A stretch of DNA of 40,786 bases from Clostridia bacterium (GTDB lineage: Bacteria; Bacillota; Clostridia; Oscillospirales; CAG-272). A program made the position numbers and the translations under genes. The stretch is from the NCBI GenBank assembly GCA_017472305.1, contig JAFUQP010000002.1:66143-106928 (forward strand), given 5' to 3'. Positions 15,990 through 36,432 of this stretch are shown piece after piece. Under the pieces are notes generated by a model. It was not told the DNA's origin. It did not search any database and saw nothing but the letters and a program-made list of their open reading frames with translations. Every line of letters begins with the position of its first letter. The first letter of the stretch is position 1.

Positions 15990-16023
15990 AATTCGCAATT
16001 TATTAAATAAGGAAAACAAAAAA

Positions 16024-17961
16024 ATGGGACTTACTATTGTTGAAAAGATTATTAAAAATCACATAGTTGAGGGCGAGATGGTGCGCGGCACCGAAATCGG
16101 ACTCAGAATCGACCAGACTCTCACGCAGGACGCGACCGGAACTATGGCATATCTTCAGCTTGAGGCTATGGAGATTGACAGAGTCAAAACCGAGCTTTCG
16201 GTTGCCTATATCGACCACAACACCCTTCAGTCGGGCTTTGAGAATGCCGACGACCACCGCTACATACAGACTGTAGCGAGAAAGCACGGCCTTCGCTTCT
16301 CCCGTCCCGGCAACGGCATCTGTCATCAGGTGCATCTTGAGCGCTTCGGCAAGCCCGGCAAGACTCTCATAGGCTCGGACAGCCATACTCCCACCGCGGG
16401 CGGTATCGGTATGCTCGGTATGGGTGCCGGCGGTCTTGACGTTGCGGTTGCAATGGGAGGCGGCGCATACTACATCACAATGCCCAGGGTTATCAAGGTT
16501 AACCTTGTCGGCAAGCTCTCCGACTACGTCGGCGCAAAGGACGTAATCCTCGAGGTATTAAGACTCCTCTCGGTCAAGGGCGGCGTCGGCGCGGTTATCG
16601 AATACTCGGGAGAGGGCGTTAAGACGCTTTCGGTTCCCCAGAGAGCTACAATCACGAATATGGGCGCAGAGCTCGGCGCAACAAGCTCTATATTCCCCTC
16701 GGACGCCGAAACCGAGAAGTTCCTTCGCGCGCAGGGCAGAGCCGAGGATTACATTCCTCTCGAGGCAGACCCCGACGCGGTATACGACAAGGAATACACC
16801 GTTGACCTCTCAGCTCTCCGTCCCCTTGCAGCTTGCCCTCACAGCCCCGATAACATCAAGAGTGTCGAGAGCCTTGCGGGCGCGAAGATTGACCAGGTTT
16901 GCATAGGCTCCTGCACCAACTCCTCGCTCTCGGATATGCTCACGGTTGCAAAAATGCTCAAGGGCAAAACCGTTCACCCCGACGTCAGCCTTTCGATTTC
17001 CCCCGGCTCAAAGCAGGTTTATACGATGCTCGCAGAGTGCGGCGCTCTTGCCGACCTTATCGCGGCAGGCGCGAGAATTCTCGAGTGCGCCTGCGGTCCC
17101 TGTATCGGAATGGGCTTCTCGCCGAAATCAAAGGGCGTCAGCCTTCGTACCTTCAACCGTAACTTCCTCGCTCGCTCGGGCACTGCCGATGCAAGCGTTT
17201 ATCTCGTATCCCCCGAAACCGCGGCGGCATCCGCTATTGCAGGTGTGTTCTGCGACCCGACAACCCTCGGCACAGCACCGAAAATCGATATGCCCGAGCG
17301 CTTCTCGATTAACGACAACCTTATAGAGCTCCCCGCAAGCGAGGAGGATGCAAAGGCACTCACCGTCGAGCGCGGACCTAACATCAAGCCTATCCCGAAG
17401 GGCGAGGCACCGAAGGAAAACCTCGAGTGCGAGCTTATCCTTAAGGTTGGCGACAACATTACAACCGACCACATTATGCCCGCGGGAGCAAAGATACTTC
17501 CCTACCGCTCGAACGTTCCGAAGCTCTCGGAGTTCTGCTTCACGGTATGCGACAAGGACTTCCCCGAAAGAGCGAAGGCGAAGGGCGGCGGAGTAATTCT
17601 CGGCGGTCAGAACTACGGACAGGGCTCGTCGCGTGAGCACGCGGCGCTCGTTCCGCTATACCTCGGTGTCAAGGCGGTTGTTGCAAAGAGCTTCGCCCGT
17701 ATCCACCAGGCGAACCTCATTAACTTCGGCATAGTCCCTATGACGCTTAAGTGCGAGGCTGACTACGACAAGATTGCCGAGGGCGAGAAAATTTATATCG
17801 AGGGCTTTGCAGAGGCTATCCGCTCAAAGGACGAGGCAGTCCTCGTTACCGAGCGCGGCGAGAAAATCCCGCTCGTCCTCACCCTCTCCGAGCGTCAGCG
17901 CGAGATACTTCTTGCAGGCGGCACGCTCAACTACACGAAGGCAAAATCAAGCGCAAAGTAA
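16024..17961 (+). CDS. Aconitate hydratase
   Basis: A 645-aa aconitase that isomerises citrate to isocitrate through a [4Fe-4S] cluster. Cluster ligands are Cys297 in CIGSCTNS and Cys357/Cys360 in ECACGPCIG. The substrate-binding ISDSHTPT-like segment is IGSDSHTPTAGGIG (about 117-130), and the swivel domain has GQGSSREHAALVP (about 535). The length, shorter than the 890-aa AcnA or 860-aa AcnB, matches the compact Aquifex-type aconitase of anaerobes. The start at 16024 (MGLTIVEKII) is chosen over an upstream ATG at 15973 that overlaps the gntR end, because AAGGA precedes it and family members start here. No isocitrate dehydrogenase is in the window. Confidence 0.95.
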   Translation: MGLTIVEKIIKNHIVEGEMVRGTEIGLRIDQTLTQDATGTMAYLQLEAMEIDRVKTELSVAYIDHNTLQSGFENADDHRYIQTVARKHGLRFSRPGNGICHQVHLERFGKPGKTLIGSDSHTPTAGGIGMLGMGAGGLDVAVAMGGGAYYITMPRVIKVNLVGKLSDYVGAKDVILEVLRLLSVKGGVGAVIEYSGEGVKTLSVPQRATITNMGAELGATSSIFPSDAETEKFLRAQGRAEDYIPLEADPDAVYDKEYTVDLSALRPLAACPHSPDNIKSVESLAGAKIDQVCIGSCTNSSLSDMLTVAKMLKGKTVHPDVSLSISPGSKQVYTMLAECGALADLIAAGARILECACGPCIGMGFSPKSKGVSLRTFNRNFLARSGTADASVYLVSPETAAASAIAGVFCDPTTLGTAPKIDMPERFSINDNLIELPASEEDAKALTVERGPNIKPIPKGEAPKENLECELILKVGDNITTDHIMPAGAKILPYRSNVPKLSEFCFTVCDKDFPERAKAKGGGVILGGQNYGQGSSREHAALVPLYLGVKAVVAKSFARIHQANLINFGIVPMTLKCEADYDKIAEGEKIYIEGFAEAIRSKDEAVLVTERGEKIPLVLTLSERQREILLAGGTLNYTKAKSSAK

Positions 17962-18206: not shown

Positions 18207-18301
18207 CATAGCGTAATATGTCGCCCGAAGAGGGCGGCATACTTGCCGCAGCGGAGAATAACAGGCTGCGGACTAAAAGAAAAAAGCAAGAGGGGAAAGC
18301 A

Positions 18302-20152
18302 ATGAAACTTAATTTTAACGTATGTCCCTGCCTTGACGAGGGCATTGACAGACTTTCGGGAATACTCGGCTTCGAGAGAGGCGAGGGAATGGCCGTCACC
18401 GCCGTCGAGGGCGACAGAACAGGCGTTTGCCTTAAGGAAGGCAAGGCTACGGTTTACTACAGAAAAAAACACGAATTCTTCCGCGAGCTCGGTATTCTCG
18501 TAGAGCGTGCAAGGACCTCGTCGGAATTCGATATCACAGAGGACGGCTTCTTTGAAACCGTCAGCACTATGATTGACGCCTCGCGCTGTGCTGTTCCCAC
18601 CGTTAAGACCGCGAAAAGGCTTCTCGATTACCTTGCGGTTATGGGCTACGGAATGATGATGCTCTACACCGAGGACGTTGTCGAGCTTGCAGACAAGCCA
18701 TACTTCGGATATATGCGCGGCAGATACACCGTCGCGGATTTACGCGAGATTGACGACTACGCATACGTATACGGCATTGAGGTTATTCCCTGCATCGAGT
18801 GCTACGGCCACATGGAGAAATACCTCATCTGGCCCGAGGCAGCTCCGATAAAGGATACCGCAGGCGTGCTTCTTGCAAGAGAGGAAAAAACCTTCGAGTT
18901 CGTCGAGCTTCTTATTTCCACCGTTTCCTCGGCATTCCGCTCAAAGAGAATACATATCGGTATGGACGAGGCTTGGGATATGGGCCGCGGTGCGTTCCTT
19001 GACAAGCACGGCTACGTTCCCCCCTTCGATATCTTCAACGAGTTTATGGAGCGTCTTATCGGCATTACGAATAAGTACGGCCTCACTCCTATGATGTGGA
19101 GCGATATGTACTTCAGAATAAGCAACAAAAATGGTGACGGCTACTACGAGGAGGATATTGAAATTCCCGATTGGGTTAAGGCAAAAATCCCCGAGGAGGT
19201 AGAGCTTGTATTCTGGCACTACGGCGAGAAGCACGAGTGCGACGACTATATGCTGAGAAAGCACAACGACCTCGGCAGAAAGGTTATCTATGCCGGCGGA
19301 AGTTGGGGTTGGATAGGTCACTTCCCCGAGCACAACTACACAATGAGCACCACACGCTTCTCGCTCAATGCCTGCAGAAATAACAACGTTCGCGAGGCAA
19401 TGCTGACGGTTTGGTGCAACGACAACGCAGAGTGCGACACCTTCGCAAACCTCTTCGACCTCTCCTACTTTGCAGAGCTCTGCTATAATAAGGACGTAAC
19501 CGAGGCGGAGCTGAAGGCTCGCTTCGAGGCTTGCACGGGCGGCTCTTACGATGCCTTCTACGCAATGTCCTACTACCACAACGACTTTGAAAGACAGAAG
19601 GAGCACGAGAGATATTCGACAAGATTCCTCGGCAAGCCGCTCTTCTGGCAGGATATTCTCGAGGGACTCTACGACTCTCACCTCTTCGAAAAGAAGATGT
19701 CCGACCACTACGCATACGCAAGAGAGCTTATGAAGGGCTACTCGGGCGGCGAGTGGGGCTACCTCTACGATTACGCGGTGGCAGTCTTTGACTACCTTGC
19801 GAAGAAAACCGAGATTGCAGAGCTGCTCTACCCCGCTTACAAGGCAGGCGACAGGGCTACACTCAAGAAAATCGCAGATGAGCTTCTTCCAGCGCTCCGC
19901 GAGGCAACAGACAAAGTTCACAAGGAGCATAAGCGCACCTGGCACCATACCTACAAGGCTATCGGCTGGGCAAACCTCGACGTAAGATACGGCGGCGTCA
20001 AGGAGAGATGCGACACCGCTGCATGGATGATTAACTCCTACCTTTCGGGAGAGCTTGACTCTATCGAGGCACTCGAGGAGGACAGACTCAACAAGTCGCT
20101 TTCGGGCTTCGTGCACTACTCGGGAATTGCAACCCCCAACCTCAAGACCTAA
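18302..20152 (+). CDS. Glycoside hydrolase family 20, beta-N-acetylhexosaminidase-like
   Basis: A 616-aa protein with no signal peptide, so probably cytoplasmic. The TIM barrel shows strands LDYLAVMGYGMMMLYTED, VYGIEVIPCIECYGHMEKYLIWPE and KRIHIGMDEAWDMGRG. The Asp222-Glu223 pair in GMDEAWD is the substrate-assisted catalytic pair of GH20, corresponding to GxDE in known enzymes. The N-terminal 100 residues form the preceding alpha/beta domain and the C-terminal 200 are helical. It should release terminal N-acetylglucosamine or N-acetylgalactosamine from imported oligosaccharides. The start at 18302 (MKLNFNVCPC) has GAGGGGAAA upstream and is preferred over an in-frame ATG at 18218, which would overlap the promoter region. 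It is transcribed alone and ends at a bidirectional terminator. Confidence 0.82.
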   Translation: MKLNFNVCPCLDEGIDRLSGILGFERGEGMAVTAVEGDRTGVCLKEGKATVYYRKKHEFFRELGILVERARTSSEFDITEDGFFETVSTMIDASRCAVPTVKTAKRLLDYLAVMGYGMMMLYTEDVVELADKPYFGYMRGRYTVADLREIDDYAYVYGIEVIPCIECYGHMEKYLIWPEAAPIKDTAGVLLAREEKTFEFVELLISTVSSAFRSKRIHIGMDEAWDMGRGAFLDKHGYVPPFDIFNEFMERLIGITNKYGLTPMMWSDMYFRISNKNGDGYYEEDIEIPDWVKAKIPEEVELVFWHYGEKHECDDYMLRKHNDLGRKVIYAGGSWGWIGHFPEHNYTMSTTRFSLNACRNNNVREAMLTVWCNDNAECDTFANLFDLSYFAELCYNKDVTEAELKARFEACTGGSYDAFYAMSYYHNDFERQKEHERYSTRFLGKPLFWQDILEGLYDSHLFEKKMSDHYAYARELMKGYSGGEWGYLYDYAVAVFDYLAKKTEIAELLYPAYKAGDRATLKKIADELLPALREATDKVHKEHKRTWHHTYKAIGWANLDVRYGGVKERCDTAAWMINSYLSGELDSIEALEEDRLNKSLSGFVHYSGIATPNLKT

Positions 20153-21388: not shown

Positions 21389-22243
21389 ATGTCGTTTACG
21401 TTTGATGCGGAGCGCCTGGAGAAGGTGCTTGCGGATTTTTACCGCGCCACGGGCGCACCTATGGACCTGTTGAAGCCCGACGTAACCTCTGTGTACGTTC
21501 CGCTGCTCGGTACAAAAAAATACTGCGACGTTATCCGCGACACGAGAGTGGGCAGACAGAGATGCGGCGCGGATAACCTCTATCTTGTCGAGCAGTGCAA
21601 CAAGACGAAGGACGCCGCCGTTCAGGTCTGCCACGCGAAGGTCGTGCATCTTATGGTGCCGGTGCTATCGGGCGACGAAATAGTTGCCTATCTTGCAATC
21701 GGCCGCTTCAGAACGGCAGACAGCTTCCCGAAGGACAACAACCCCCTCGCCGACCTTCCGCTTGACGAGGAGGAGATGTGCCTTGCGTGGGACGAGCTGA
21801 CGCATATTGACGATATGCCGCTTGACAGCATAATCTCGCTTGCGAAGATAGTTGCGTCATATCTCGTGTCGGAGAAGATTATCAAGACGGTAAGCAACGA
21901 GAACCTCGAGAGGGTTGAGGAGTTTATCGACGAGCACCTCTCCGAGGACCTCTCAATAGAGCGAATCTCGCGCGAAACAAACATTTCAAAGAGCGTGCTT
22001 TACAGAAACTTCAGCTCGCACCTCGGTATCACCGTCAGCGAGTATATTAACCTCAAGCGTGTCGAGGTGTCTGTCGGACTGCTTATAAAAACCGACCTGT
22101 CGATAGACGAGATAGCGCACAGAGCGGGCTTCTCCTCGTCGGCATACTACGTCAGCGTGTTCAAGAGGTGCAAGGGTATGACTCCCCTGCAATTCAGAAA
22201 GAAGAAGTTTTTGCGAGTCAACAAATGCGACTCATCTTTGTAA
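21389..22243 (+). CDS. AraC family regulator with PocR sensory domain
   Basis: A 284-aa regulator. Residues 1-165 match the PocR ligand-binding fold: a cysteine-rich first half (YCDVIRDTRVGRQRCGADN, then VQVCHAKVVHLMVPVL) followed by DEIVAYLAIGRFR. Residues about 180-275 are the double helix-turn-helix, with LSEDLSIERISRETNISKSVLYRNF and LSIDEIAHRAGFSSSAYYVSVFKR ending at the usual GMTPLQFRKK. PocR domains are thought to bind small organic molecules or redox-sensitive ligands; the ligand here is unknown. GGAGGTTATT precedes the ATG. It sits upstream, in the same direction, of the large lipoprotein gene and is its likely regulator. Confidence 0.9.
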   Translation: MSFTFDAERLEKVLADFYRATGAPMDLLKPDVTSVYVPLLGTKKYCDVIRDTRVGRQRCGADNLYLVEQCNKTKDAAVQVCHAKVVHLMVPVLSGDEIVAYLAIGRFRTADSFPKDNNPLADLPLDEEEMCLAWDELTHIDDMPLDSIISLAKIVASYLVSEKIIKTVSNENLERVEEFIDEHLSEDLSIERISRETNISKSVLYRNFSSHLGITVSEYINLKRVEVSVGLLIKTDLSIDEIAHRAGFSSSAYYVSVFKRCKGMTPLQFRKKKFLRVNKCDSSL

Positions 22244-22261
22244 ATATTAGTTTGCATTTCT

Positions 22262-22281
22262 AGGCGCAATTCCGCCTTTTT
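22262..22281 (+). terminator. Weak intrinsic terminator between regulator and lipoprotein genes
   Basis: AGGCG (22262-22266) and CGCCT (22273-22277) form a 5-bp stem followed by a T-run. The stem is short, so read-through or attenuation is likely. Confidence 0.5.
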
Positions 22282-22325
22282 AAGTGTTTTTCACACTCCA
22301 GCACTTTTACGAAAGGATATTCTCT

Positions 22326-25300
22326 ATGAAAGGAAAGATTATATCGGTTGTTATACTCCTGCTCGCCCTTATATTATCTATAGCGTCCTGCCACGTATCC
22401 GACGGCACGGGCGACTCGGGCAGCTCCTCGGGTAGCGGTCAGACGGGCGGCAGTGGCACAGGCAGCACAAGCCCCGACTCGGGCGACGAAGATAGCGGCG
22501 GAAGCGCCGACTCGCCTCCCACAGGCTACATATATGAGAACGGCTCGGAGCTTAAGATTGTTTTCTCCGACTCTCGCCTCTATGAGCTTGCCTCGGCTCT
22601 TAAGGACAGAATAACCAACTACTCTACGGCAACGGTTACCCTCGTATCCGACACCGAGGAGAAATACGAGCACGAGATTATTCTCGGCGTAACCGACCGA
22701 CCTCTCTCCGGCAAGGCGTACAGAAGGCTCTCGAGAATGGACAAATCCGAGGGCAACACCGCCTATACGCTATATTCCGACGGCTCGTCGGTGGCGGTAG
22801 CCTTCGACGACGATTTCTACGGCTCGGCTATGGCTGACTCGGTAGGCTACCTTTCGGAGAGCATTATAGCGAAGAACTCCTCGCTCTCGCTCCCTGTGGG
22901 AAGAATTGCCGAGCGCGAGTACGACCCTCTCGAGGGTGTGCGAGAGCTTGATAAAAAGAGGCAGGACGAGCAGTTTGCCGCTCTTGCCGAGGAAATAACC
23001 GAAAAATACGGCGAAGGGTATGCAGAGGCAACCGTCGAGGCGCTTCGCGATTACTACTCGCTTTATACCGACAACCTCGTTTTGTGGTTTGCCAACCTCT
23101 ACGACCCCTCAGTCGGCGGCTACTACTATTCAAACTCCGCGCGTGACACCGTAGGCTTCCTTCCCGACGTCGAGAGCACGACGCAGGCGCTCAACTTCAT
23201 TGTCGGCTCGGGAATGGCGCAGTCGGTCGGCGGCAGATACTCCGACGTAATCTCCGACACAATGCGGGAAGAAATCATAGGCTTCGTAAGAGGGCTTCAG
23301 GATAAAAACGGCTACTTCTATCACCCGCAGTGGGGCAAGGAGCTGACCGACGTGAACGTTTCGCGCCGCTCGCGCGACCTCAACTGGGCTACGGGAATTC
23401 TTAAGGCGCTTGGCGCTAATCCGATATACGACACCCCCTCGGGAATGAAGGGTGAGAGCGCCTCGCCCGTATCAATGACGGGTATGCTCGGCTCGAGTGT
23501 CACGGCAGCGGTATCGCGCGCGGTTATTCCGACAGCCTCGTCGGCAACCGTTTCACCACAGCTCCGTACTAAGGAAGCGCTTCTCGAGTACCTTGACGCC
23601 TTCGATATGAAGAACGACTCCTACTTTGCAGGCAACGAGCTCGGCTCGCAGGCAGGTGAGATACTCGAAAGGGATAAGCAGCTCGAGAGCGCGGGCGCAG
23701 ACTGGCGCGCAAGCGAAATAATTATAGATTTCCTCAACCGAAAGCAGATACCCGAAACAGGCACCTGGCACTACGAGAGAAACTATATGGGAGTCAACGG
23801 ACTTCTTAAAATTTCCGGACTGTATAACTCTCTCGGAGTTAAAATGAATTACCCCCTCGTTGCGGCGGAGTCGGCGATAGCGGCAATTACCACCTCGGAA
23901 GAGCCCTTGACGATATGCTATGCATATAACGCGTGGTTCTCGGTGACGAATATTCAGAAAAATCTCCGTGAGTACAGCGACGACAAGGAGGAGGGCGAAA
24001 AGCAAGCGGCAGCTCTCTCTCTTGCCATAATGGAGAACGCGCCCGAGTCGATAAGAGCGACGAAGGAAAAATACCTCAAGTTTTTGAAATACGACGGCTC
24101 ATTCTCCTATAACCAGACCTCAAGCGCGGCAAACGCGCAGGGACTCCCCGTAGCAATCCCTGGCACGAACGAGGGCGACGTTAACGCCACCGAAATAGGC
24201 ACGGCGGGAGTTCTCGGACATATCTACGGTGCGCTTGGACTTCGGAAGGTTCCCTTCTTCGGCGACTCGCACAGGCTTCTTTATCTTTGCACAATCGACT
24301 CGCTCGGTGCGGTTATCAAGGACGTAGAAAACGACGAGGTCGGCTACGTAACCTACGACGAGGACTCCCCGGGAAGAGAGCCGAGCGACGTTACAGGCTC
24401 ACGAACCTCGTCGGGAAGCCTTACCGTAATACGCGACGAGCGCGAGGAAAAGACGGGTAACGTTCTAAAGCTCGTTTCGGTAAACGACGGCGGCGACACT
24501 CTCGTCTATTCCTGCGACAGTATGAGAGCCGACCTTAAGTGCTTCGTCTTTGAAACCGAAATGTGCGTCACCTCGTCCGACGTCAGCGGAAACATAATGC
24601 AGATTTACCTCGGCAACAAGGCTTATATGCTCAACGTCAAGGTAGAAAACGGCAAAATCCGACTTTCCGACGTTTCCTCGGGCTCGAATCCGAGGCTTGA
24701 AAACGATTTTGGTGTCGAGATAGAGCTCGGCAAGTGGTTCCACCTCAAGGCGGAATACTATGCAGCAGACGAGGAGAACGTCAGAGCGAAGGTCTACGTT
24801 GACGGCGAGCTGGTCGGTGTTACCGACAACTATTACGACGCCTCGGCGGCAAGGCTCAACGGAAAGCGCGGAAAGCCAAACCAGCACTACACCGAGGCAT
24901 CGGTATACGCGATGTCCTACCACAATATGGAGGTGCTGTTTGACAACACCGCAAGCTACAAAACAAGAACGCCCTTCCGCGCGGTAACACCGCTTGATAA
25001 GCAGCCTCACGTCAATATCGACGACGAGAAGCATATCCTCGGACCTGCCGACCCCGACACGGGTAACGGCGCGTACTACAACAACGAGGAAATCACCGAC
25101 GCCACGAGATTCCACTACGGAATGATGGGCTATCCTATGCCTGCCCTCTCGGGCTCGCTCTACGCCTCGTCGTCGGTTGAAGGCGGTATGCTCAAATTCA
25201 AGAGAACGGCTGCGGCAGGCTCGGGCGAGAGCTATATTAACTTCAGAGTAATTCCCCCGACAGGCGACTTTGCGAGCCCCGCGACGGTAATAGAGTTCGA

Positions 25301-26570
25301 CTACCGCTTCTCGGGCGGCGATATTTCGGCAGACAACGCGCCTCTCCGCCTTGACGACGGCAACTACGTAAGATTCGTTAAAAACTCAGACGGCGAGTCC
25401 TTCTCGCTCGGCAAAAAGGACACCGCGGAGATTGTCGCGGGCGAGTGGTTTAATATCTGCCTTGAAATCTACTATCTCGGCGAGTTCTGCGAGTACGCAA
25501 AGGTATTCGTTGACGGCGAGTATACGACCACTGTAAGGCTCGTCAATATGTCCCCCTTCAACGAGAGGCTTCTCGTCTACCTTAAGAAGAATATGGAGAA
25601 GGACACCGAAATTAATATCGACAATATGTTCTTCTGGCACACCGAGAAGGAATACGTTCCCGAGAGTGCCGAGTACAAGGCTCCCGATATTAATATAACT
25701 TACACCGACGCGCCCGCGACGGGCGAATACTTCGGCTCACAGATTACCGAGGGAGCGGTGAGATTTGACTACTCCGACGGAGCAGTCCCCTCGCTCTCGG
25801 GCAGTGCCGCGCTCGTGCTTAACAAGAATGAGAGCGCTCTTATGATGAAGATTGACTCGGGTGAGGGTTATATAGGCTATAGCCTGTCGCCGGAGATTAT
25901 GGCACTCCACCCTGCGACGGTCTTTGAGTTCGACTACAAAATGTCGGGACTCGACCCGACCTACGATAACGCTCCGATAAGACTTGACGGCGGAAACCAC
26001 CTGCGCTTCGTGAAGAACACCGACGGTGTCAGCTGGTCTATTGCCGAGAAAGACACGGCAAGAATCACCGCAAACAAGTGGTACAATATAAGACTTGAAA
26101 TTTACTACGTCACCGAGGAAAGCGAGCTTGTCAAGGTGTTCGTTGACGGTGAGCATACCGCCACGGTAAATCTTGCCGAGGCGTCTGCCTTTAACTCGCG
26201 CGTCCTCTTCTATATGAAGAACGGCGCAGCAAAGGACGCTGTAATATTCATCGACAACGTATTCTACTGTCACCTTGATAAGGAATACGTAGCACCCGAC
26301 AGCGGCGAGGGTGAAGGCGGCGGCACAGAGCCCACTCCCCCCGAAGGTGGCGGTAGCGAAGGCGGTGGAAACACCGAAGGCGGCGGCGAAGGAACCGAGC
26401 CTACTCCCCCCGAGGGCGGCGGCAACGAAGGCGGAGGCGATAACGAGGGCAGCGGTGCGGGTAGCATTGGCGGCGGTGCCTCAGGCGACGTTGTCGAGGG
26501 CGCAGGCACAACGCTTCTTCCCGGCCCCGATATGAGCGGCGACGGCTGGTCTACGCCGAATTTACAGTAG
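22326..26570 (+). CDS. Giant multidomain lipoprotein: alpha/alpha-toroid-like domain plus three ConA-like modules
   Basis: A 1414-aa surface lipoprotein. Signal peptide with lipobox IASC near residue 20, a Gly/Ser/Asp linker to about 70, then an alpha/beta domain (about 72-200, ELKIVFSDSRLYELASALKD ... EHEIILGVTDRP) resembling the N-terminal accessory domain of GH20/GH67-type enzymes. Residues about 226-653 align throughout with the next gene and share its motifs (GGYYYSNSARD, YHPQWGK, PETGTW, CYAYNAWFSVTNI). Three jelly-roll/LamG-like modules follow (about 690-880, 924-1117, 1138-1325); the last two are clearly alike (FDYR/KxSG, RFVKNxDG, VFVDGEYT/HT). The C-terminal 90 residues are Gly/Glu/Pro-rich with a 23-residue repeat. 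The ATG at 22326 has AAAGGA upstream; an in-frame ATG at 22284 lies before the signal and is rejected. Glycan binding or processing is likely; activity is unknown. Confidence 0.8.
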   Translation: MKGKIISVVILLLALILSIASCHVSDGTGDSGSSSGSGQTGGSGTGSTSPDSGDEDSGGSADSPPTGYIYENGSELKIVFSDSRLYELASALKDRITNYSTATVTLVSDTEEKYEHEIILGVTDRPLSGKAYRRLSRMDKSEGNTAYTLYSDGSSVAVAFDDDFYGSAMADSVGYLSESIIAKNSSLSLPVGRIAEREYDPLEGVRELDKKRQDEQFAALAEEITEKYGEGYAEATVEALRDYYSLYTDNLVLWFANLYDPSVGGYYYSNSARDTVGFLPDVESTTQALNFIVGSGMAQSVGGRYSDVISDTMREEIIGFVRGLQDKNGYFYHPQWGKELTDVNVSRRSRDLNWATGILKALGANPIYDTPSGMKGESASPVSMTGMLGSSVTAAVSRAVIPTASSATVSPQLRTKEALLEYLDAFDMKNDSYFAGNELGSQAGEILERDKQLESAGADWRASEIIIDFLNRKQIPETGTWHYERNYMGVNGLLKISGLYNSLGVKMNYPLVAAESAIAAITTSEEPLTICYAYNAWFSVTNIQKNLREYSDDKEEGEKQAAALSLAIMENAPESIRATKEKYLKFLKYDGSFSYNQTSSAANAQGLPVAIPGTNEGDVNATEIGTAGVLGHIYGALGLRKVPFFGDSHRLLYLCTIDSLGAVIKDVENDEVGYVTYDEDSPGREPSDVTGSRTSSGSLTVIRDEREEKTGNVLKLVSVNDGGDTLVYSCDSMRADLKCFVFETEMCVTSSDVSGNIMQIYLGNKAYMLNVKVENGKIRLSDVSSGSNPRLENDFGVEIELGKWFHLKAEYYAADEENVRAKVYVDGELVGVTDNYYDASAARLNGKRGKPNQHYTEASVYAMSYHNMEVLFDNTASYKTRTPFRAVTPLDKQPHVNIDDEKHILGPADPDTGNGAYYNNEEITDATRFHYGMMGYPMPALSGSLYASSSVEGGMLKFKRTAAAGSGESYINFRVIPPTGDFASPATVIEFDYRFSGGDISADNAPLRLDDGNYVRFVKNSDGESFSLGKKDTAEIVAGEWFNICLEIYYLGEFCEYAKVFVDGEYTTTVRLVNMSPFNERLLVYLKKNMEKDTEINIDNMFFWHTEKEYVPESAEYKAPDINITYTDAPATGEYFGSQITEGAVRFDYSDGAVPSLSGSAALVLNKNESALMMKIDSGEGYIGYSLSPEIMALHPATVFEFDYKMSGLDPTYDNAPIRLDGGNHLRFVKNTDGVSWSIAEKDTARITANKWYNIRLEIYYVTEESELVKVFVDGEHTATVNLAEASAFNSRVLFYMKNGAAKDAVIFIDNVFYCHLDKEYVAPDSGEGEGGGTEPTPPEGGGSEGGGNTEGGGEGTEPTPPEGGGNEGGGDNEGSGAGSIGGGASGDVVEGAGTTLLPGPDMSGDGWSTPNLQ
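26328..26450 (+). repeat. 69-bp in-frame repeat coding the lipoprotein's C-terminal tail
   Basis: The codons for TEPTPPEGGG recur after 69 bp (starts near 26326 and 26395), giving a 23-residue period in a Gly/Glu/Pro-rich tail. Such tails often cross or attach to the cell wall; slippage could change its length. Confidence 0.65.
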
Positions 26571-26618
26571 ATGCGATTACAAATTTCGATTTTTTAGAAT
26601 TCTACAGAGGAAAAACCA

Positions 26619-27851
26619 ATGAACACTAATAATTTTAAAACTTGGGACGAACTTGAAAAAAAGGTTAACGAGATGGGCGGCGACGGCAAAGAGGTCGTAA
26701 AGGCAATGAAGGAGCACTACGAGCTCTACGGCGAGGAGCTTTATCTATGGCTCGCAGGGCTCTACGACGCGGGAATAGGCGGCTTCTACTACTCCAACTC
26801 GGGAAGGGACAACGAGCCCTTCCTACCGGATATCGAGTCAACCGAGCAGGCAACAAACATTCTTCTCGGCTCGGGACTTATCAGTGACACGGCAGACCTG
26901 CCCGAAAAGATGCGCGAGGGAGTATCTGCCTTCGCAAAAAGCCTTCTGGACCCCGAGGACGGCTACATCTATCACCCCCAGTGGGGCAAGGATATCAACG
27001 ACAGCCGCCGAGGCAGGGACCTCACCTGGGCAAAGCAGCTCGAGGAACAGTACCGCTTCACTCTCCCCTACCCCACAGCGCTTGACAGACTCGCAAAGAC
27101 AGAGCGGACAGAGAGCGAGGAATCGGTGCTCGCGGAGCATCTTCGTTCCCCCGAGGCGCTCGTTAGCTATCTTGACAAGCTTGATTGGCAGGGCGACGCC
27201 TACTACGCAGGAAATATGTTATCGGCTCAGGCGCTTCAGATTGTTGCGGCAGGGCTTACCGACACGGCGGTTAATTATCTCAATGAAAAGCAAAACCCCG
27301 AAACAGGACTCTGGGGCGAGCGTCAGGGCTACTACGCTATAAACGCGCTCCTGAAAATCAGCGGCGCTTACACGACCTTCAAGAGCGTATTCCCGAACGC
27401 AATGAAGGCGGCAAGGTCGGCTATCGAGTGCCTGACGAGCGACGAAAAATGCCTCACCTGCTGCTACCACTACAACGCTTGGTTCTCACTGACGAACATA
27501 AGAGAGCTGCTTAATAGATACGGCGGCGAGGAAGGTAAGCGCGAGGCAGAGGAAATACTCGCGGAGCTTATCAGAACCGCTCCCGAAACCATCAGGGCAA
27601 CGAGGAAAAAGGTTCTTGCCTTCGCAAAGCCCGACGGCGGATTTTCCTATCTTCCCCACTGCTCCACAGGATTTTCACAGAAGATGCCCGTGTCGATACA
27701 CCAGACCGTCGAGAGCGACGTCAACGCAAGCGTAATTTGCTCGACAGGCATCACAAGAAACGTGTTCACAGCCCTTGGTCTTGAGGATTATATCGTACCG
27801 ATGTTCGGCATATCCGACAGAGAGAAATTCCTTAAGGCTCTGAAGCTTTAA
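26619..27851 (+). CDS. Leaderless paralogue of the lipoprotein's toroid domain
   Basis: A 410-aa protein without signal peptide or membrane helix, so cytoplasmic unless exported by an unknown route. It corresponds to residues about 226-653 of the lipoprotein encoded just upstream. Shared blocks are GGFYYSNSGRD (54-64), FLPDIESTEQA, YHPQWGK (118-124), RRGRDLTWA (130-138), QNPETGLWG (225-233), NALLKISGAY, CYHYNAWFSLTNI (282-294), PDGGFSY and ESDVNA. QNPETGLW resembles the QW motif of terpenoid-cyclase/prenyltransferase-type alpha/alpha barrels, a fold also used by polysaccharide lyases and LanC cyclases. Conserved Asp, His, Trp and Asn positions suggest a real active site. AGAGGAAAAA precedes the ATG, 48 bp after the lipoprotein gene. 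No family name was recognised. Confidence 0.8.
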   Translation: MNTNNFKTWDELEKKVNEMGGDGKEVVKAMKEHYELYGEELYLWLAGLYDAGIGGFYYSNSGRDNEPFLPDIESTEQATNILLGSGLISDTADLPEKMREGVSAFAKSLLDPEDGYIYHPQWGKDINDSRRGRDLTWAKQLEEQYRFTLPYPTALDRLAKTERTESEESVLAEHLRSPEALVSYLDKLDWQGDAYYAGNMLSAQALQIVAAGLTDTAVNYLNEKQNPETGLWGERQGYYAINALLKISGAYTTFKSVFPNAMKAARSAIECLTSDEKCLTCCYHYNAWFSLTNIRELLNRYGGEEGKREAEEILAELIRTAPETIRATRKKVLAFAKPDGGFSYLPHCSTGFSQKMPVSIHQTVESDVNASVICSTGITRNVFTALGLEDYIVPMFGISDREKFLKALKL

Positions 27852-27917
27852 CCCCTAAAAAGACGAAAAATACGCAAATATACAAACAATTATTTACAAA
27901 ATGAAAGGAGAAAGTAT

Positions 27918-28076
27918 GTGAAAGAGAAGCTTGTAAAGCTGCCGTATGAGTCGGCAGAGGTAGACGTTTCGCTCTTCTGCGAGCGTGACGTAATAGCGAC
28001 GTCGGGCGTTCTTAACGTTGGCGGAGAGAGTAGCGGAAACCTTCCCTCCGACCAGTGGACACCGCCCAGGTGGTAA
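27918..28076 (+). CDS. 52-aa peptide with GTG start
   Basis: A short gene not starting with ATG: GTG at 27918, preceded by AAAGGAG with 7 nt spacing, the strongest ribosome site in the neighbourhood. The product begins MKEKLVKLPYESAEVDVSLF, has one Cys (FCERDVIATSG), then a Gly/Ser/Pro-rich C-terminal half ending WTPPRW. It has no hydrophobic segment. It resembles short proteins with an ExDVIxTSG core that I recall from gut Clostridia, often next to surface-protein genes; that comparison is from memory. The overlapping ATG two bases earlier meets an immediate stop. It lies 66 bp after the toroid gene and 46 bp before the secreted protein gene and is probably co-transcribed. A structural, signalling or modified peptide are all possible. 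Confidence 0.65.
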   Translation: MKEKLVKLPYESAEVDVSLFCERDVIATSGVLNVGGESSGNLPSDQWTPPRW

Positions 28077-28122
28077 GCCAAAACCATAGCGAAATTTCAA
28101 AATACGAAAGGAAATAAGATTA

Positions 28123-29547
28123 ATGAAAAGAAACTCTAAAATTCTCGTTTTCATTCTTGCCTTCTCCCTGCTTATAGGCTCTGCGTTTTGCTTCGCTGCC
28201 ACAGCAGATGAGGAGCCCGCAAAGAAGCTCACCGTTATAAGCCAGAACGTTGAGTACTCCGACACACTTTATCTCTATTACGCGGTATATCCCGAGAACG
28301 TTGACACCGAGGGCTTGAAGCTCGAGATATACACCTCGAACCCCACAGGCGAGGCAACTCCCGTTGCTACCGTTACAGAGTCCACCGAGGTAACTATCAC
28401 CGACACCGACAGCACCGAGTACGTCTGCCGCGCGTTCAAGTCCCCCGGCATTGCCCTCAAGGATATGTCTGCCCAGCTCTACGTCAAGGCAGTTGCCGCT
28501 GACGGCACCGAGAGCTCGGTAAGAAGGTACAGCGTTGTTGAATACTTCAACGAGATGTCCTTCACCACCGAGGACGAAAGCAGGTCGGCAGCCTACAGAG
28601 ATATGCTCAAGGCAGGCGACGCAGCGCAGCTTATACTTAACCACTATCCAAATGACAACGCAAACGACTACGCATCCAACTACAAGTACGTTACCGTGAC
28701 CGACGACACGCTTGCCGACGGCTTCGACCGCGGCGTATACCTCACCGGCACGAGCGTTACCCTTAATTACACGGGCAGCGACGCAGCAAATACCGGCTGG
28801 ACCGTCGAGAACCTTATGACAGGCGAAACCGAATACGTAGCCTTCGGCTCGGCTATCGTGCTTGATGCTCACGTATCACTTACCCCCACAATCAAGCCTT
28901 ACGAGCGCGGCGAGGGACTGTATTGGACGAATTCCAGCCTTCGCGAGGGTAATTCCCGAGCATATAATTTCAACGGCACTCTTACGGACGGCAAGCTCAA
29001 CGGACAGAACTCCACAACCACAGCAGAGGGCACCTATACCGACGGTGCAGCAATGCTTAAGAAGCTTGATAGCTCCGAGGTTTACTTCTATTACAGCCAC
29101 GGCAATTACGAAACTATGTGTACAAGCGGCGAGCTTGGAGTAGCAAATGCTACCTGTCATATTTACGAGTTTGACTACAAGATTTCCGAAATCGTAGACC
29201 AAACATCTCTCTTCAATCTCGGTAACAATGACCAGATTTACGTTGTTAAAAACTCCGACGGAGAGACATACTCTATCGGTACTAAAGACACCTCCTCCTT
29301 CGTTGCAAACGAGTGGTTCAACATACGCTTTGAGATATACAAGGGAGCAGGCGCAAACGGCGAAAACCTTGTTAAAATATTTATAAACAACGAATATGCT
29401 ACCACAAAAACATTTGCAACGGCAACAACCGACAACAACTATAGCCGCATTAGGTGGTATATCCGCTCCTATTACTCAGTAGATACGACAATCAGTGTTG
29501 ATAATCTCATTCACGCAGCAAGCACAAAGACGTACGTAGCAGAATAA
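28123..29547 (+). CDS. Secreted protein with C-terminal ConA-like module
   Basis: A 474-aa exported protein. Signal peptide MKRNSKILVFILAFSLLIGS with a likely cleavage after AFCFA-A or ATA. Residues about 30-260 form a beta-rich, unassigned region (TVISQNVEYSDTLYLYYAVYPENV..., GVYLTGTSVTLNYTGSD). Residues about 270-474 match the C-terminal modules of the lipoprotein: YEFDYKISEI, VVKNSDGETYSIGTKDT, ANEWFNIRFEIY, VKIFINNEYATTKTF and TISVDNLIHA. There is no lipobox or sorting signal, so it is probably released or bound through its module. AAAGGAAATAAG precedes the ATG. The gene is last in the run and ends at a strong terminator. Function unknown; glycan binding by the module is likely by analogy. 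Confidence 0.8.
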   Translation: MKRNSKILVFILAFSLLIGSAFCFAATADEEPAKKLTVISQNVEYSDTLYLYYAVYPENVDTEGLKLEIYTSNPTGEATPVATVTESTEVTITDTDSTEYVCRAFKSPGIALKDMSAQLYVKAVAADGTESSVRRYSVVEYFNEMSFTTEDESRSAAYRDMLKAGDAAQLILNHYPNDNANDYASNYKYVTVTDDTLADGFDRGVYLTGTSVTLNYTGSDAANTGWTVENLMTGETEYVAFGSAIVLDAHVSLTPTIKPYERGEGLYWTNSSLREGNSRAYNFNGTLTDGKLNGQNSTTTAEGTYTDGAAMLKKLDSSEVYFYYSHGNYETMCTSGELGVANATCHIYEFDYKISEIVDQTSLFNLGNNDQIYVVKNSDGETYSIGTKDTSSFVANEWFNIRFEIYKGAGANGENLVKIFINNEYATTKTFATATTDNNYSRIRWYIRSYYSVDTTISVDNLIHAASTKTYVAE

Positions 29548-29996: not shown

Positions 29997-30842
29997 ATGA
30001 AAAAGGCAAAGGAACTAAATCTTATCAACAGACCCACAGTACGCACATTTTTGTACGTTGCCGACACCGACAGTCCCAAAACCGCGCTTCACTATCACAG
30101 CGAGATGGAATTCATTGCCGTTTACGAGGGCAGTGTCAGCTGCACAGTCCGAGGTGAAAAATACGTCGCCAACGAGGGCGAGGTGCTTTTCGTAAACTCC
30201 GGAGTTCCGCACTCGGTGGACAGGCAGAACGGAAGCCGTGTACTACACGTTCAGCTCTCTGAGCTCGACTATACCGATGCCGAGAAGCTTTCCGACCTCT
30301 ACTACGCGACGCTCTACAAAAGCCAGGTAATTGCTCCGGTCAAGATTTTCAATAGCGAAAAGCTGTTTTCCGCAATAGACGAAATTTACAGAGAAACAGA
30401 GGAAAAGCTCCCTGCTTCAAGCGCTTTTATTCGCTCGGGAATTCTTCGCATTCTCGCTCACCTCTACCGTGACGGAACGCTTTATAATGCAGAGGAAATT
30501 TTCAACACACGCGAGCTACAGAAGCTAATCCCTGCTATCCGCTACATAAATGAAAACTACGTTGAGAACATCGCGCTTGAAACGGTAAGCGAGCTTATCG
30601 GCTTCGACCAGAGCTACTTCTGCCGTGTGTTCAAGAGCACCGTTGGAACAACCTTTACCGAGTATCTCAACTTTGTTAAAATCCTAAAAGCAGAGGAAAA
30701 GCTTCTTGACACACGTGACGCTATCTTTGATATATCGCGCTCGGTCGGATTTGCCTCTGTGTCATATTTCAACAGAATTTTCAAAAGATTTAGAAACTGC
30801 TCACCGAGATTTTACCGCTCGGTGGTGTCGCTTAGAGCCTAG
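29997..30842 (+). CDS. AraC family regulator with cupin sensory domain
   Basis: A 281-aa regulator. Residues 15-105 are the cupin-like arm: ALHYHSEMEFIAVYEGSVSC, then GEKYVANEGEVLFVNSGVPHSV, typical of sugar-sensing AraC proteins. Residues about 175-280 hold the two helix-turn-helix units: NIALETVSELIGFDQSYFCRVFK and AIFDISRSVGFASVSYFNRIFKRF with the usual closing CSPRFYRS. AGAGGAAAG precedes the ATG. It follows the surface-protein cluster in the same direction but has its own promoter behind a strong terminator. It may control that cluster or an operon elsewhere. Confidence 0.92.
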   Translation: MKKAKELNLINRPTVRTFLYVADTDSPKTALHYHSEMEFIAVYEGSVSCTVRGEKYVANEGEVLFVNSGVPHSVDRQNGSRVLHVQLSELDYTDAEKLSDLYYATLYKSQVIAPVKIFNSEKLFSAIDEIYRETEEKLPASSAFIRSGILRILAHLYRDGTLYNAEEIFNTRELQKLIPAIRYINENYVENIALETVSELIGFDQSYFCRVFKSTVGTTFTEYLNFVKILKAEEKLLDTRDAIFDISRSVGFASVSYFNRIFKRFRNCSPRFYRSVVSLRA

Positions 30843-31681: not shown

Positions 31682-32998
31682 ATGTCGCTTTTTATGCTTG
31701 GACGCGCTAAAGTCCCGCACAGAAAAAATACGGCAAATATGAAGGCGGAGAGAATTCCCGCGCCCACATCGGTCACTCTGCTGACCTCTCAGCACATCGG
31801 CGCACCCGCGACCCCCACCGTTAAGGTCGGAGATAAGGTCAAGGTCGGCACTCTCGTGGCAGAGGCATCGGGCTACGTAAGCTCTCCCGTCTATTCCTCG
31901 GTATCCGGCACGGTAAAGAAGCTTGAGCCGCATCTTATGTATAACGGAAGAAGCTGTCAGGCTATCATAATCGAGTCCGACGGAGAAATGACTCCCGACG
32001 AGAGCATAGCTCCCCCGACTATCAGCTCCTTTGACGAGCTTTCCGCGGCGGTACGCGCCTCGGGACTTGTAGGACTTGGCGGTGCGGGCTTCCCCACCTC
32101 GGTAAAGCTTGATGCCGAGAAGAAGGGACTTATCAAGAAAATTATTCTCAACGGAGCCGAGTGCGAGCCCTATATTACAAGCGATACCCGCACAATGCTC
32201 GACGACGGCGAATACATCAAGGCAGGCGTTGAGCTGCTCCAAAAGTACGTTTCCGCTGACGAGGTTATAGTCGGAATTGAGAGAAACAAGCCCGAATGTA
32301 TCGCAAACCTTACCTCGCTCTTTGCGGGAAATGAGAAGGTGCGCGTGGTTTCGCTCCCCGACACATATCCGCAGGGCGCGGAAAAAATCCTTATACACAA
32401 TACGGCAGGGCTTGACGTGCCCGAGGGCGGACTCCCCGCGGACGTTGGCTGTCTGGTTATGAACGTGACCTCGGTTGCATTCCTTGCAAAATATGCCGAG
32501 AGCGGTATGCCCCTCGTTGAAAAGTGTGTGACGGTTGACGGCTCGGCAATAAAGAGCCCGAAGAACCTCATAGTACCTATAGGAACTCCTATAAAGGACG
32601 TTATCGAGGCGGCAGGCGGCACCTCGTGCGAGGTCGGAAAGATTCTCTACGGCGGTCCTATGATGGGTATGGCGGTTTATTCCGACGAGGAGCCCGTCCT
32701 CAAGAACACCAACGCTATAACCGTAATGAACAAGAAGGATGCGGAGCCGAAGAAGCTCTACCCCTGTATACACTGCGGCAGATGCGCCGAAATCTGTCCT
32801 ATGGGGCTCAATCCCACCCTCTACGCGAAGGCTATGAAGGTATCCGACCCCGCCGACAGACGCGCCCGTCTTAACGATGCAAAGATAAATCTCTGTATGG
32901 AGTGCGGCTGTTGCTCCTTCGTGTGCCCCTCGGCGCGCCCCCTCGTTGAAACCAACAAGCTTGCGAAGGCTGACCTTCGCGCAGCGCAGAATAAGTAA
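31682..32998 (+). CDS. rnfC: Rnf complex subunit RnfC
   Basis: A 438-aa peripheral subunit carrying the NADH/FMN and iron-sulfur sites of the Rnf complex. VGDKVKVGTLVAEASGYVSSPVYSS is the N-terminal barrel-sandwich segment. GLGGAGFPTSVKL and ILNGAECEPYITSDTRTML are the nucleotide/FMN-binding signatures. Two 4Fe-4S motifs are at the C-terminus, CIHCGRCAEICP and CMECGCCSFVCP, as in RnfC. Length is normal for clostridial forms. First gene of rnfCDGEAB, which passes electrons from reduced ferredoxin to NAD+ while exporting Na+ or H+. Confidence 0.97.
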   Translation: MSLFMLGRAKVPHRKNTANMKAERIPAPTSVTLLTSQHIGAPATPTVKVGDKVKVGTLVAEASGYVSSPVYSSVSGTVKKLEPHLMYNGRSCQAIIIESDGEMTPDESIAPPTISSFDELSAAVRASGLVGLGGAGFPTSVKLDAEKKGLIKKIILNGAECEPYITSDTRTMLDDGEYIKAGVELLQKYVSADEVIVGIERNKPECIANLTSLFAGNEKVRVVSLPDTYPQGAEKILIHNTAGLDVPEGGLPADVGCLVMNVTSVAFLAKYAESGMPLVEKCVTVDGSAIKSPKNLIVPIGTPIKDVIEAAGGTSCEVGKILYGGPMMGMAVYSDEEPVLKNTNAITVMNKKDAEPKKLYPCIHCGRCAEICPMGLNPTLYAKAMKVSDPADRRARLNDAKINLCMECGCCSFVCPSARPLVETNKLAKADLRAAQNK

Positions 32999-33016
32999 GA
33001 TTGGAGGATATTAAAG

Positions 33017-35830: not shown

Positions 35831-36432
35831 TGGATTTCAAGATGCTTCTTTATATTCTCCTTATGGGAGTGTTCGTAAACAACTACGTTCTAAACAAGTT
35901 CCTCGGCATCTGTCCCTTCCTCGGTGTATCGAAGAAATTCAACCAGGCATCGGGTATGGGCATTGCGGTTATCTTCGTTATGCTCGTAGCAACCGCCGTG
36001 ACCTGGCCTATTCAGATTTACGTGCTTGACCCCGCGGGACTCGGATTCCTTCAGACAATAGTATTCATTCTCGTTATAGCGGCACTCGTTCAGTTCGTTG
36101 AAATCGTGCTTAAGAAGTTTATACCCGCCCTTCACAAGTCGCTTGGCGTATATCTTCCGCTTATAACCACCAACTGCGCCGTTCTCGGCGTAGCAATCAA
36201 CAACATTACCGACGGCTACAACTTTATCGAGTCGATGTTCTCATCTCTCGGCGTTGGACTCGGCTTCCTTCTTGCGATGGTGCTATTCGCGGGCGTGCGC
36301 TCGAGAATTGAGAACTGCCCCTCGCCTAAGGCGGTGCAGGGCTTGCCTATAACGCTTATCGCCGCGTCTATCGTTTCGCTTGCATTCTTCGGCTTCTCGG
36401 GAGTCCTCGAAAATCTTCTCGGTATTGCCTGA
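35830..36432 (+). CDS. rnfA: Rnf complex subunit RnfA
   Basis: A 200-aa six-helix membrane protein. VNNYVLNKFLGICPFLGVSKK and ITTNCAVLGVAINN carry the two cysteines that, with those of RnfE, hold the membrane [2Fe-2S] cluster. The two proteins are inverted paralogues. Start ATG overlaps the rnfE stop in TAATG, with AAGGAGG upstream. Confidence 0.97.
   Translation: MDFKMLLYILLMGVFVNNYVLNKFLGICPFLGVSKKFNQASGMGIAVIFVMLVATAVTWPIQIYVLDPAGLGFLQTIVFILVIAALVQFVEIVLKKFIPALHKSLGVYLPLITTNCAVLGVAINNITDGYNFIESMFSSLGVGLGFLLAMVLFAGVRSRIENCPSPKAVQGLPITLIAASIVSLAFFGFSGVLENLLGIA

What the first reader, a model, noticed from the sequence alone, without database searches (positions are those of the whole stretch)
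21389..29547. Uncharacterised surface system: regulator, giant lipoprotein, cytosolic paralogue, 52-aa peptide and secreted partner
Five consecutive same-strand genes share modules in an unusual way. The toroid domain of the lipoprotein (about 226-653) recurs as a separate leaderless protein. The lipoprotein's C-terminal module recurs in the secreted protein. A 52-aa peptide gene sits between them. A PocR/AraC gene precedes and an AraC gene follows. The module sharing argues that the products act on the same ligand in different compartments: outside on the membrane, inside, and released. No standard transporter, SusC/D pair or known glycosidase is included, so it is not an ordinary polysaccharide locus. 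A glycan-processing or peptide-modifying role are the two simplest hypotheses.
Basis: partly seen in the sequence, partly recalled or inferred. Interest (0 to 1): 0.75.

Follow-up and report, generated by a model that had tools for sequence, protein, structure and literature searches.

The report
Surface cassette with matching peptide tail
A gut-type Clostridia bacterium carries about twenty versions of a gene set for a giant surface lipoprotein, its internal twin, a secreted partner and a roughly 50-residue peptide that looks like the raw material of a modified peptide, and in many versions the peptide and the lipoprotein end in a similar short tail.

Summary
The window's genome has 20 such clusters: 18 hold the lipoprotein (L) with its leaderless twin (C), 17 hold L, C, peptide (p) and secreted protein (S); L, C and S alone fill about 8% of the assembly. 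The 52-aa ORF is a real gene: 36 homologues in 41 stretches, 32 directly upstream of S. They share Y..[A/P]...D[VI][IV]..S at near-fixed spacing, then a variable tail with Trp near the end. This pattern, plus one genomic operon (stand-alone RRE, kinase-like, SipW-like peptidase, NTP_transf_5), resembles the linear polyphosphorylated peptide (LPP) RiPPs of 2026. In five other genomes a homologue of that kinase lies within 1 kb of a p gene. So p is most likely an LPP-like precursor matured in trans. About a third of L proteins end in a Trp tail; cognate L/p tails beat all 2000 shuffles, though the window's own pair is a weak match. In other lineages toroid genes often lack p and S. The toroid has no curated family. 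Ligand, toroid chemistry, peptide modification and tail function are inferred.

The parts
21389..22243 (+). PocR-type sensor plus AraC HTH regulator
   Evidence: PF10114 1.3e-21, HTH_18 8.7e-20
22326..26570 (+). L: giant lipoprotein (likely ATG start; longer ORF from GTG 22284)
   Evidence: ORF; ribosome site before ATG 22326; signal stretch with Cys at residue 36 of the longer ORF, codon 22389-22391 (motif by eye)
22515..22958 (+). N-terminal domain of L, weakly like the N-terminal domain of the GH84 enzyme NagJ (approximate borders)
   Evidence: profile of 18 relatives: NagJ E 0.043; Tet4 variant (9.7e-5) and separin (0.02) score better, wholly or largely on the Gly/Ser-rich stretch
22983..24287 (+). 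toroid domain of L (residues 234-668)
   Evidence: 39% identity to C, E 9e-92; family profile
25062..26303 (+). two lectin-like (laminin-G/ConA type) modules of L, residues about 927-1127 and 1147-1340
   Evidence: PF13385 1.3e-10, PF14099 4e-7; match to S
26508..26567 (+). C-terminal tail of L with Trp (…SGDGWSTPNLQ)
   Evidence: compared with p (score 26, rank 6 of 16, a weak pair)
26619..27851 (+). C: leaderless toroid protein, 410 aa
   Evidence: start region
27918..28076 (+). p: 52-aa LPP-like peptide precursor (GTG start)
   Evidence: family of 36; AAAGGAG upstream
28123..29547 (+). S: secreted protein; N-terminal region shared by the S family, C-terminal lectin-like module
29997..30842 (+). 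AraC-family regulator with cupin-type sensor
   Evidence: HTH_AraC 1.1e-18, Cupin_2 2.1e-10
18218..20152 (+). GH20-type glycosidase, neighbour, possibly part of the locus
   Evidence: PF18088 1.5e-39, PF00728 9.2e-14

Best explanation
The locus is one copy of an amplified surface cassette made of two units: L+C (toroid lipoprotein and internal twin) and p+S (peptide precursor and secreted lectin-type protein), often near AraC-type regulators. Shown here by sequence: the recurrence, the p-before-S order, the family membership of p, the cognate tails on p and many L proteins, and one genomic operon of stand-alone RRE, P-loop (HprK-like) kinase, SipW-like peptidase and NTP transferase. Inferred: p is bound by that RRE through its Y..[A/P] motif, phosphorylated on its invariant Ser, cut near that Ser by the peptidase and released as a modified peptide ending in a Trp tail. 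L sits on the membrane, binds a glycan with its lectin-like modules and acts on it with the toroid; C does related chemistry on material taken up. The tail is an address that one partner recognises on both mature p and L; S, encoded next to p, is my first candidate for that partner.
For: 17 of 20 own clusters hold L, C, p and S. p lies within 199 nt upstream of, or overlapping the called start of, S in 32 of 36 cases and next to S in 27 of 28 p-bearing loci of the collection set. Peptides: Y, D and S in 35 of 35, Trp near the end in at least 90%; Tyr-Ser distance 19 in 32 of 35 and in 50 of 57 of a wider set, against 18 in LppA by the numbering in PMC13381572 (sections 7, 9). Own genome has one PqqD/RRE above cut-off in an operon with NTP_transf_5 (3e-41), a P-loop kinase-like and an archaeal-SPase-like protein. 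Of 226 held loci (2.7 Mb) homologues of the kinase occur, outside the own operon, only in loci fetched because they hold p: five sites in other genomes, with RRE and peptidase homologues at four. Tails: 16 of 49 L end in a Trp tail versus 5 of 269 other proteins, 0 of 41 C, 0 of 38 S; cognate pairs score 640 versus 418 +- 30, 0 of 2000 shuffles reach it; Trp tails go with a nearby p (25 of 28 versus 26 of 67, Fisher 4e-6). Twelve toroid residues identical in 48 of 48 L and C domains. Lectin-type modules; AraC genes 14 of 32 within 5 kb of clusters versus 9.5% of DNA.
Against: No peptide product, modification or binding is shown. LppA's FET cleavage motif is absent and Ala replaces Pro of the Y..P motif in 12 of 19 own peptides. 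The kinase and peptidase match NCBIfam models only far below curated cut-offs; Pfam gives neither. I recognised no exporter gene in the 19 kb around the operon (by eye); no C39 exporter in the genome. Whether genomes with p generally have the operon was not surveyed. 26 of 51 L with a nearby p lack a Trp tail. The window's own tail pair is weak, rank 6 of 16. Many toroid loci lack p and S. C and S distances do not covary. No structure or ligand for the toroid.
Confidence: 0.5

Rival explanations
1. An amplified glycan-foraging system, this lineage's counterpart of SusCD-type loci: L binds and cuts glycans outside, C inside, S is a released lectin. p is a peptide that merely travels with secreted proteins, and the tail likeness is a by-product.
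For: AraC enrichment; GH4, GH43, GH1, GH92 and GH20 genes near some clusters; lectin-like modules; p occurs beside other secreted-looking proteins without toroids.
Against: Tail pairing beats all shuffles and tails depend on p; many clusters lie among housekeeping genes (by eye).
Confidence: 0.2
2. The tail is a substrate signal rather than a dock: one enzyme, for example a C-terminal modifier, acts on the Trp tails of both p and L.
For: A PGA_cap-family gene precedes the kinase in the own operon and matches the lasso C-terminal-Trp epimerase model MslH at 4.6e-15.
Against: The match is far below that model's cut-off (54.9 of 700 bits) and PGA_cap is a broad family; L is a Sec-type lipoprotein, so its tail should meet a cytosolic enzyme only briefly; tails differ from locus to locus.
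Confidence: 0.13
3. Conflict or signalling: mature p is a secreted inhibitor or signal, and S and L are its locus-specific receptor or protection.
For: RiPP-like precursor, many diverging copies, locus-specific tails.
Against: No dedicated export or immunity gene recognised in the cassette; lectin-like modules and glycosidase neighbours point to glycans.
Confidence: 0.1
4. The tail likeness is a fossil: old duplication or gene conversion between the 3' ends of L and p, with no present function.
For: L125 tails are 29 of 33 alike in DNA; a mild excess of shared codons, 55 of 111 versus 43.5 expected, led by L131, L035 and L125.
Against: In most pairs the DNA is no longer alike while the protein is.
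Confidence: 0.07

Closest known systems
Linear polyphosphorylated peptides (LPP), RiPP family of Bacillota (PMC13381572, 2026)
   Same: Discrete RRE and NTP transferase in one operon with kinase-like and SpI-like proteins; short precursors with conserved N-terminal half, Y..P-type motif, Ser at near-fixed distance and variable C-terminus; in other genomes precursor genes beside the operon.
   Different: Own precursors are scattered beside S genes, about twenty per genome, with the operon elsewhere; no FET motif; often Ala for Pro; no exporter recognised; tail shared with a lipoprotein.
Lasso peptides of the paeninodin type
   Same: RRE (lasso_PqqD models 1.6e-7 and 1.4e-6, below cut-off), kinase and NTP transferase type genes; Y/W..P leader motif.
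   Different: No Transglut_core3 (B2) in the own genome; lasso cyclase was not searched for.
Prenyltransferase / terpene-cyclase / TED type alpha-alpha toroids
   Same: Weak Pfam matches of some members: Prenyltrans 8 of 69, TED_complement 1, SQHop_cyclase_C 1.
   Different: The matches are weak; the family has its own invariant polar residues and no Cys among the positions conserved in 90% or more.
Polysaccharide utilisation loci (SusCD-type in Bacteroidota, gram-positive loci in Firmicutes; recalled)
   Same: AraC-type regulation, lectin-like surface proteins, glycosidase genes near some clusters.
   Different: No known catalytic carbohydrate family in L, C, p or S of the window above a curated cut-off except a lectin-like/PL14099-type module; peptide gene present. 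SusC/SusD were not searched for.

Membership tests
LPP RiPP (p plus the own C1 operon) | discrete RRE | tested here: met
   PF05402 3.3e-14, 85 aa, stand-alone
LPP RiPP (p plus the own C1 operon) | NTP transferase in the operon | tested here: met
   PF14907 3e-41 next to the peptidase gene
LPP RiPP (p plus the own C1 operon) | HprK-like kinase | tested here: inconclusive
   P-loop GKSGTGKST type motif by eye; NCBIfam ScmC 1.4e-5, HprK_rel_A 0.011, both below cut-off; no Pfam family
LPP RiPP (p plus the own C1 operon) | SipW/archaeal-type signal peptidase as leader peptidase | tested here: inconclusive
   TIGR02228 1e-4, below cut-off; Ser, His and Asp motifs by eye; no Pfam family
LPP RiPP (p plus the own C1 operon) | MsbA-like transporter in the cluster | tested here: inconclusive
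   none recognised by eye in the 19-kb stretch L220; not searched genome-wide
LPP RiPP (p plus the own C1 operon) | Y..P motif in the leader | tested here: inconclusive
   Tyr in 35 of 35; fourth residue Ala 12, Pro 5, other 2 of 19 own; Pro 34 and Ala 15 of 57 in the wider set
LPP RiPP (p plus the own C1 operon) | Ser acceptor at fixed distance from the Tyr | tested here: met
   distance 19 in 32 of 35; 18 in LppA by the paper's numbering
LPP RiPP (p plus the own C1 operon) | FET cleavage motif before the core | tested here: not met
   D[VI][IV]..S instead; therefore called LPP-like, not filed as LPP
LPP RiPP (p plus the own C1 operon) | precursor gene in the cluster with the enzymes | tested here: inconclusive
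   yes at five sites in other genomes; no clear p found in the own stretch L220
LPP RiPP (p plus the own C1 operon) | phosphorylated Ser and leader removal | not testable with these tools
   needs expression and mass spectrometry
Lasso peptide | B2 leader peptidase (Transglut_core3) | tested here: not met
   0 matches at E 0.01 in the own genome, 86% complete
Lasso peptide | asparagine-synthetase-like cyclase | not tested
Prenyltransferase-type alpha-alpha toroid superfamily | sequence match to a member family | tested here: inconclusive
   8 of 69 at E 10 or better, best 6e-5; PDB profile search best C4A TED 0.79
Prenyltransferase-type alpha-alpha toroid superfamily | alpha-alpha toroid fold | not testable with these tools
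Polysaccharide utilisation locus | carbohydrate enzyme of known catalytic family inside the cassette | tested here: inconclusive
   L matches PF14099 (polysaccharide lyase) 4e-7, just above cut-off, in a lectin-like module; C, p and S none; glycosidase genes beside some clusters
Polysaccharide utilisation locus | glycan transporter (SusCD or ABC) in the locus | not tested
   no targeted search; one search shows only the first 25 of 94 families of the flanks

The most novel reading that the evidence does not exclude
One RiPP pathway matures, in trans, about twenty different peptides, each encoded beside its own secreted lectin-type protein. The mature peptide ends in the same locus-specific Trp tail as the giant surface lipoprotein of that cassette, so a modified peptide and a surface protein share one address read by one partner: a tag-and-dock surface assembly built on RiPP chemistry, which would give LPP/paeninodin-type peptides a cell-surface role.
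Probability: 0.35. Interest if true: 0.92.

Novelty: new variant of a known kind. Interest (0 to 1): 0.8.

Why it matters
[quoted passage not shown] Here a similar kind of precursor is amplified, tied to secreted proteins, and in many copies shares its tail with a surface lipoprotein. That turns an open question into direct tests: is p phosphorylated and cut, does S bind the tail, does a tail-less L behave differently. It also names a large family of toroid proteins without a curated family; in this genome L, C and S take about 8% of the assembly.

Tried and rejected
Rejected readings. Filler ORF for the 52-aa gene: rejected by 36 homologues and fixed place. Lasso peptide: not filed, no B2 family in the genome. 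LanC-type cyclase for the toroid: no Cys among positions conserved in 90% or more (zinc ligands of LanC recalled). Recent copying of L's 3' end into p: DNA of most pairs is not alike. Double-glycine export: no C39 peptidase in the genome. My early impression that toroids are confined to one genus was wrong: a class sample gave strong, near full-length matches in four more genomes of other families.

Led nowhere. Single-protein scans of genome contigs and viral contigs; NCBIfam and Pfam on p; PDB profile searches of S and toroid; Pfam on the N-terminal domain of L. Paper searches. Papers: PMC13381572, abstract and sections 6, 7, 9, 11, 12 read; PMC10406935, passages found by term only; all others seen as search listings only. 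None of those five listings showed this cassette; that is not proof that none is in print.

Rows dropped or weak spots. A 73-aa broken-looking second peptide copy at L052 is among the 36 but was left out of alignment A4 and the tail tests. ORFs were called from the first start codon, so several S starts overlap p. The permutation set uses the L040 lipoprotein twice (two peptides) and the related loci L042 and L136. The Mantel test used 14 of 20 clusters. The secreted-neighbour test is crude and includes some doubtful hits. Two notebook statements were wrong: '33 of 36' for p upstream of S (recount gives 32) and 'best tail match is L in every locus with score 23 or more' (two loci have a non-L protein at exactly 23).
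Full report
Check of the observation. The lipoprotein (L) and the 410-aa protein (C) share the toroid at 39% identity, E 9e-92; L and the 474-aa secreted protein (S) share a C-terminal module, E 7e-20, present twice in L. L most likely starts at ATG 22326. The 52-aa ORF (p) has a clear ribosome site. A GH20-type gene lies upstream at 18218-20152.

The locus is one of many. A profile of the toroid finds 43 domains in the window's genome of 2.03 Mb, 86% complete. Gene calling in the window and 19 fetched stretches of that genome gives 23 L, 20 C and 20 S genes, 8.3% of the assembly. They form 20 clusters, 18 with L and C, 17 with L, C, p and S. Orders vary (L C p S; p S C L; C L p S), but p stands directly before S: of 36 peptides found in 41 stretches of six toroid genomes, 32 lie within 199 nt of S, some overlapping its called start. 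The four exceptions are L042 and L136 (about 1.46 kb away), a broken-looking copy at L052 (513 nt), and a second L040 peptide that lies inside the called S frame start. L-toroid and C distances covary (r 0.49, p 0.009), C and S do not (r -0.03, p 0.54), L and S marginally (r 0.28, p 0.053, 14 of 20 clusters). I read this as two units, L-C and p-S, that are reassorted.

Distribution. Of 69 genomes of the genus 20 have toroids; of 38 genomes from other families of the order in an earlier single-sequence search, none. In 69 loci from the species-genome collection, all from MAGs titled Clostridia, Oscillospiraceae or Ruminococcus, several with ruminant-gut sources in the title, 34 have L+C, 27 have p+S and 24 have all four. 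The 24 come from JAGATD (10), JAFTPV (9), SVUG (3), JAFUPM (1) and JAFURQ (1); other records show toroid genes, some in arrays, without p or S. In a class sample 16 of 391 genomes match, own included; four in other families match strongly and over most of the length, in secreted-looking proteins of about 740-1100 aa.

What the proteins look like. The toroid matches no curated family above cut-off in the scans run. Of 69 members 8 weakly match Prenyltrans (best 6e-5), one TED_complement, one SQHop_cyclase_C; an unrelated DUF5550 also hits 8 of 69, best 0.015. This favours, but does not prove, the terpene-cyclase/prenyltransferase type of toroid. Twelve residues, among them D71, R130, R133, D134, N242, K246 and N286, are identical in 48 of 48 aligned toroids (20 C, 28 L); in a wider set of 69 six columns are invariant, R133, D134 and N286 among them. 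A polar set kept in surface and internal forms suggests an active or binding site (inference). The N-terminal domain of L weakly resembles that of the GH84 enzyme NagJ (E 0.043; two better-scoring hits fall wholly or largely on the Gly/Ser-rich stretch). The C-terminal parts of L match laminin-G/ConA-like models in 6 of 22 and PF14099 in 4 of 22.

Neighbours. Of 75 flanking genes in 11 own stretches, 5 are AraC-type, and one or two each belong to GH4, GH43, GH1 and GH92 (first 25 of 94 families shown). Other neighbours are housekeeping genes. Genome-wide, 14 of 32 AraC-type genes lie within 5 kb of a cluster while that zone is 9.5% of the DNA (binomial 4.5e-7).

The peptide. The family shares Y, D and S in 35 of 35 and a Trp near the end in at least 90%. 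The Tyr-Ser distance is 19 in 32 of 35, and in 50 of 57 scorable peptides of a wider set. It is broader than the toroid: 45 of 69 genomes of the genus and 65 of 295 in an order sample. Of 59 distinct peptides from those searches 38 have a secreted-looking neighbour by a crude test. Looking for an RRE in the own genome gave one hit above cut-off. Its neighbourhood holds, on one strand, a PGA_cap protein, a P-loop kinase-like protein, the 85-aa RRE, a 156-aa SipW/archaeal-SPase-like protein and NTP_transf_5. LPP clusters are defined by SpI peptidase, discrete RRE, HprK-like kinase, NTP transferase and MsbA-like transporter (PMC13381572, section 6); RRE and NTP transferase are clear here, kinase and peptidase are weak matches, and I recognised no transporter. 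LppA is cut after T-1 and phosphorylated on S3 (section 7). An independent check: loci had been fetched only because they hold p; among all 226 held loci, kinase homologues lie, apart from the own operon, only in such loci, at five sites in other genomes (G031, G080, G207, G221, G359), within 1 kb of p, with RRE and peptidase homologues at four of the five; a sixth p site (G017) has an NTP-transferase homologue. I therefore take p as an LPP-like precursor matured in trans. The differences are real: Ala for Pro in 12 of 19 own peptides, no FET motif, no exporter recognised, and in the own genome no clear p beside the operon.

The tails. 16 of 49 complete L proteins end in a Trp tail, against 5 of 269 other proteins, 0 of 41 C and 0 of 38 S. 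For 17 of 35 peptides the best tail match in the locus is an L protein with a score of 23 or more; no other protein scores above 23. Cognate pairs beat all of 2000 shuffles, both in the 16 Trp-tail pairs (640 against 418 +- 30) and in all 33 pairs (889 against 642 +- 31); the cognate tail ranks first in 8 of 16. Examples are GGGYHAGAWS with GGGYHGGAWS (L125) and SDIDNSAWS with SDVDHSAWT (L042). The window's pair (SGDGWSTPNLQ, PSDQWTPPRW) is weak, rank 6 of 16. Trp tails go with p: 25 of 28 L proteins with one have p nearby, against 26 of 67 without. Codon agreement at identical residues is near chance, 55 of 111 versus 43.5 expected. So in most pairs the likeness is old and held at the protein level. 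In two toroid-free genomes of the genus, G057 and G028, 7 of the 8 peptides in the fetched stretches share one tail (PGTETTPKE.[NS]DGIWD type), and a degenerate DNA pattern for DGIWD plus one residue has 24 and 11 matches there.

How it may work. Shown: composition, recurrence, order, peptide family, cognate tails, operon. Inferred: RRE binding, phosphorylation, cleavage, export by an unidentified route, glycan action of L and C, and a common partner for the tail on p and L, with S as first candidate. I put about 0.8 on p being an LPP-like precursor, 0.35 on the tail being a docking address, and 0.5 on the combined statement.

Novelty. Many precursors served by one set of enzymes is known from other RiPPs (prochlorosins, recalled). 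A precursor tail repeated on a neighbouring lipoprotein is not known to me, and the listings of five paper searches showed nothing on it. I file it as a new variant of a known kind because the peptide part works like LPP, without filing p as a member, since the cleavage motif was tested and not met.

Noticed in passing
window 31682-36432: A run of genes that reads like an Rnf electron-transport complex (identified by eye from the translation of the first gene and gene order; no family scan run).
   Followed up: no
window 13953-17961: HMGL-like synthase, GntR/FCD regulator and aconitase-family genes in a row.
   Followed up: no
L220:10691-11803 (own contig C1): PGA_cap-family gene directly before the kinase gene; matches the lasso C-terminal-Trp epimerase model MslH at 4.6e-15, far below its cut-off. 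A lead, given the Trp near the end of the peptides.
   Followed up: partly
L192-L198 (genomes G057, G028): Toroid-free genomes of the genus with 32 and 14 peptide matches; 7 of 8 peptides in the fetched stretches share one tail, and most of them lie beside giant secreted-looking proteins of 1000-2800 aa.
   Followed up: partly
L053, L107, L142: Tandem arrays of three to five toroid L genes without p or S in the stretch.
   Followed up: no
own contig C4:40867-40992 (L213, L222): A weak PqqD match (2.6e-4, below cut-off) about 1.8 kb from a cassette cluster.
   Followed up: no
L221:9006-10394 (own contig C29): SCIFF peptide maturase, TIGR03974 4e-228, found through its RRE part.
   Followed up: yes
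L052:10747-10926 and 11223-11444: Two peptide copies with the same first 35 residues; the second runs into an unrelated 3' part and looks broken.
   Followed up: no
own contig C30:63451-63684: An AraC-type gene with a stop codon inside the matched frame, beside a cluster.
   Followed up: no
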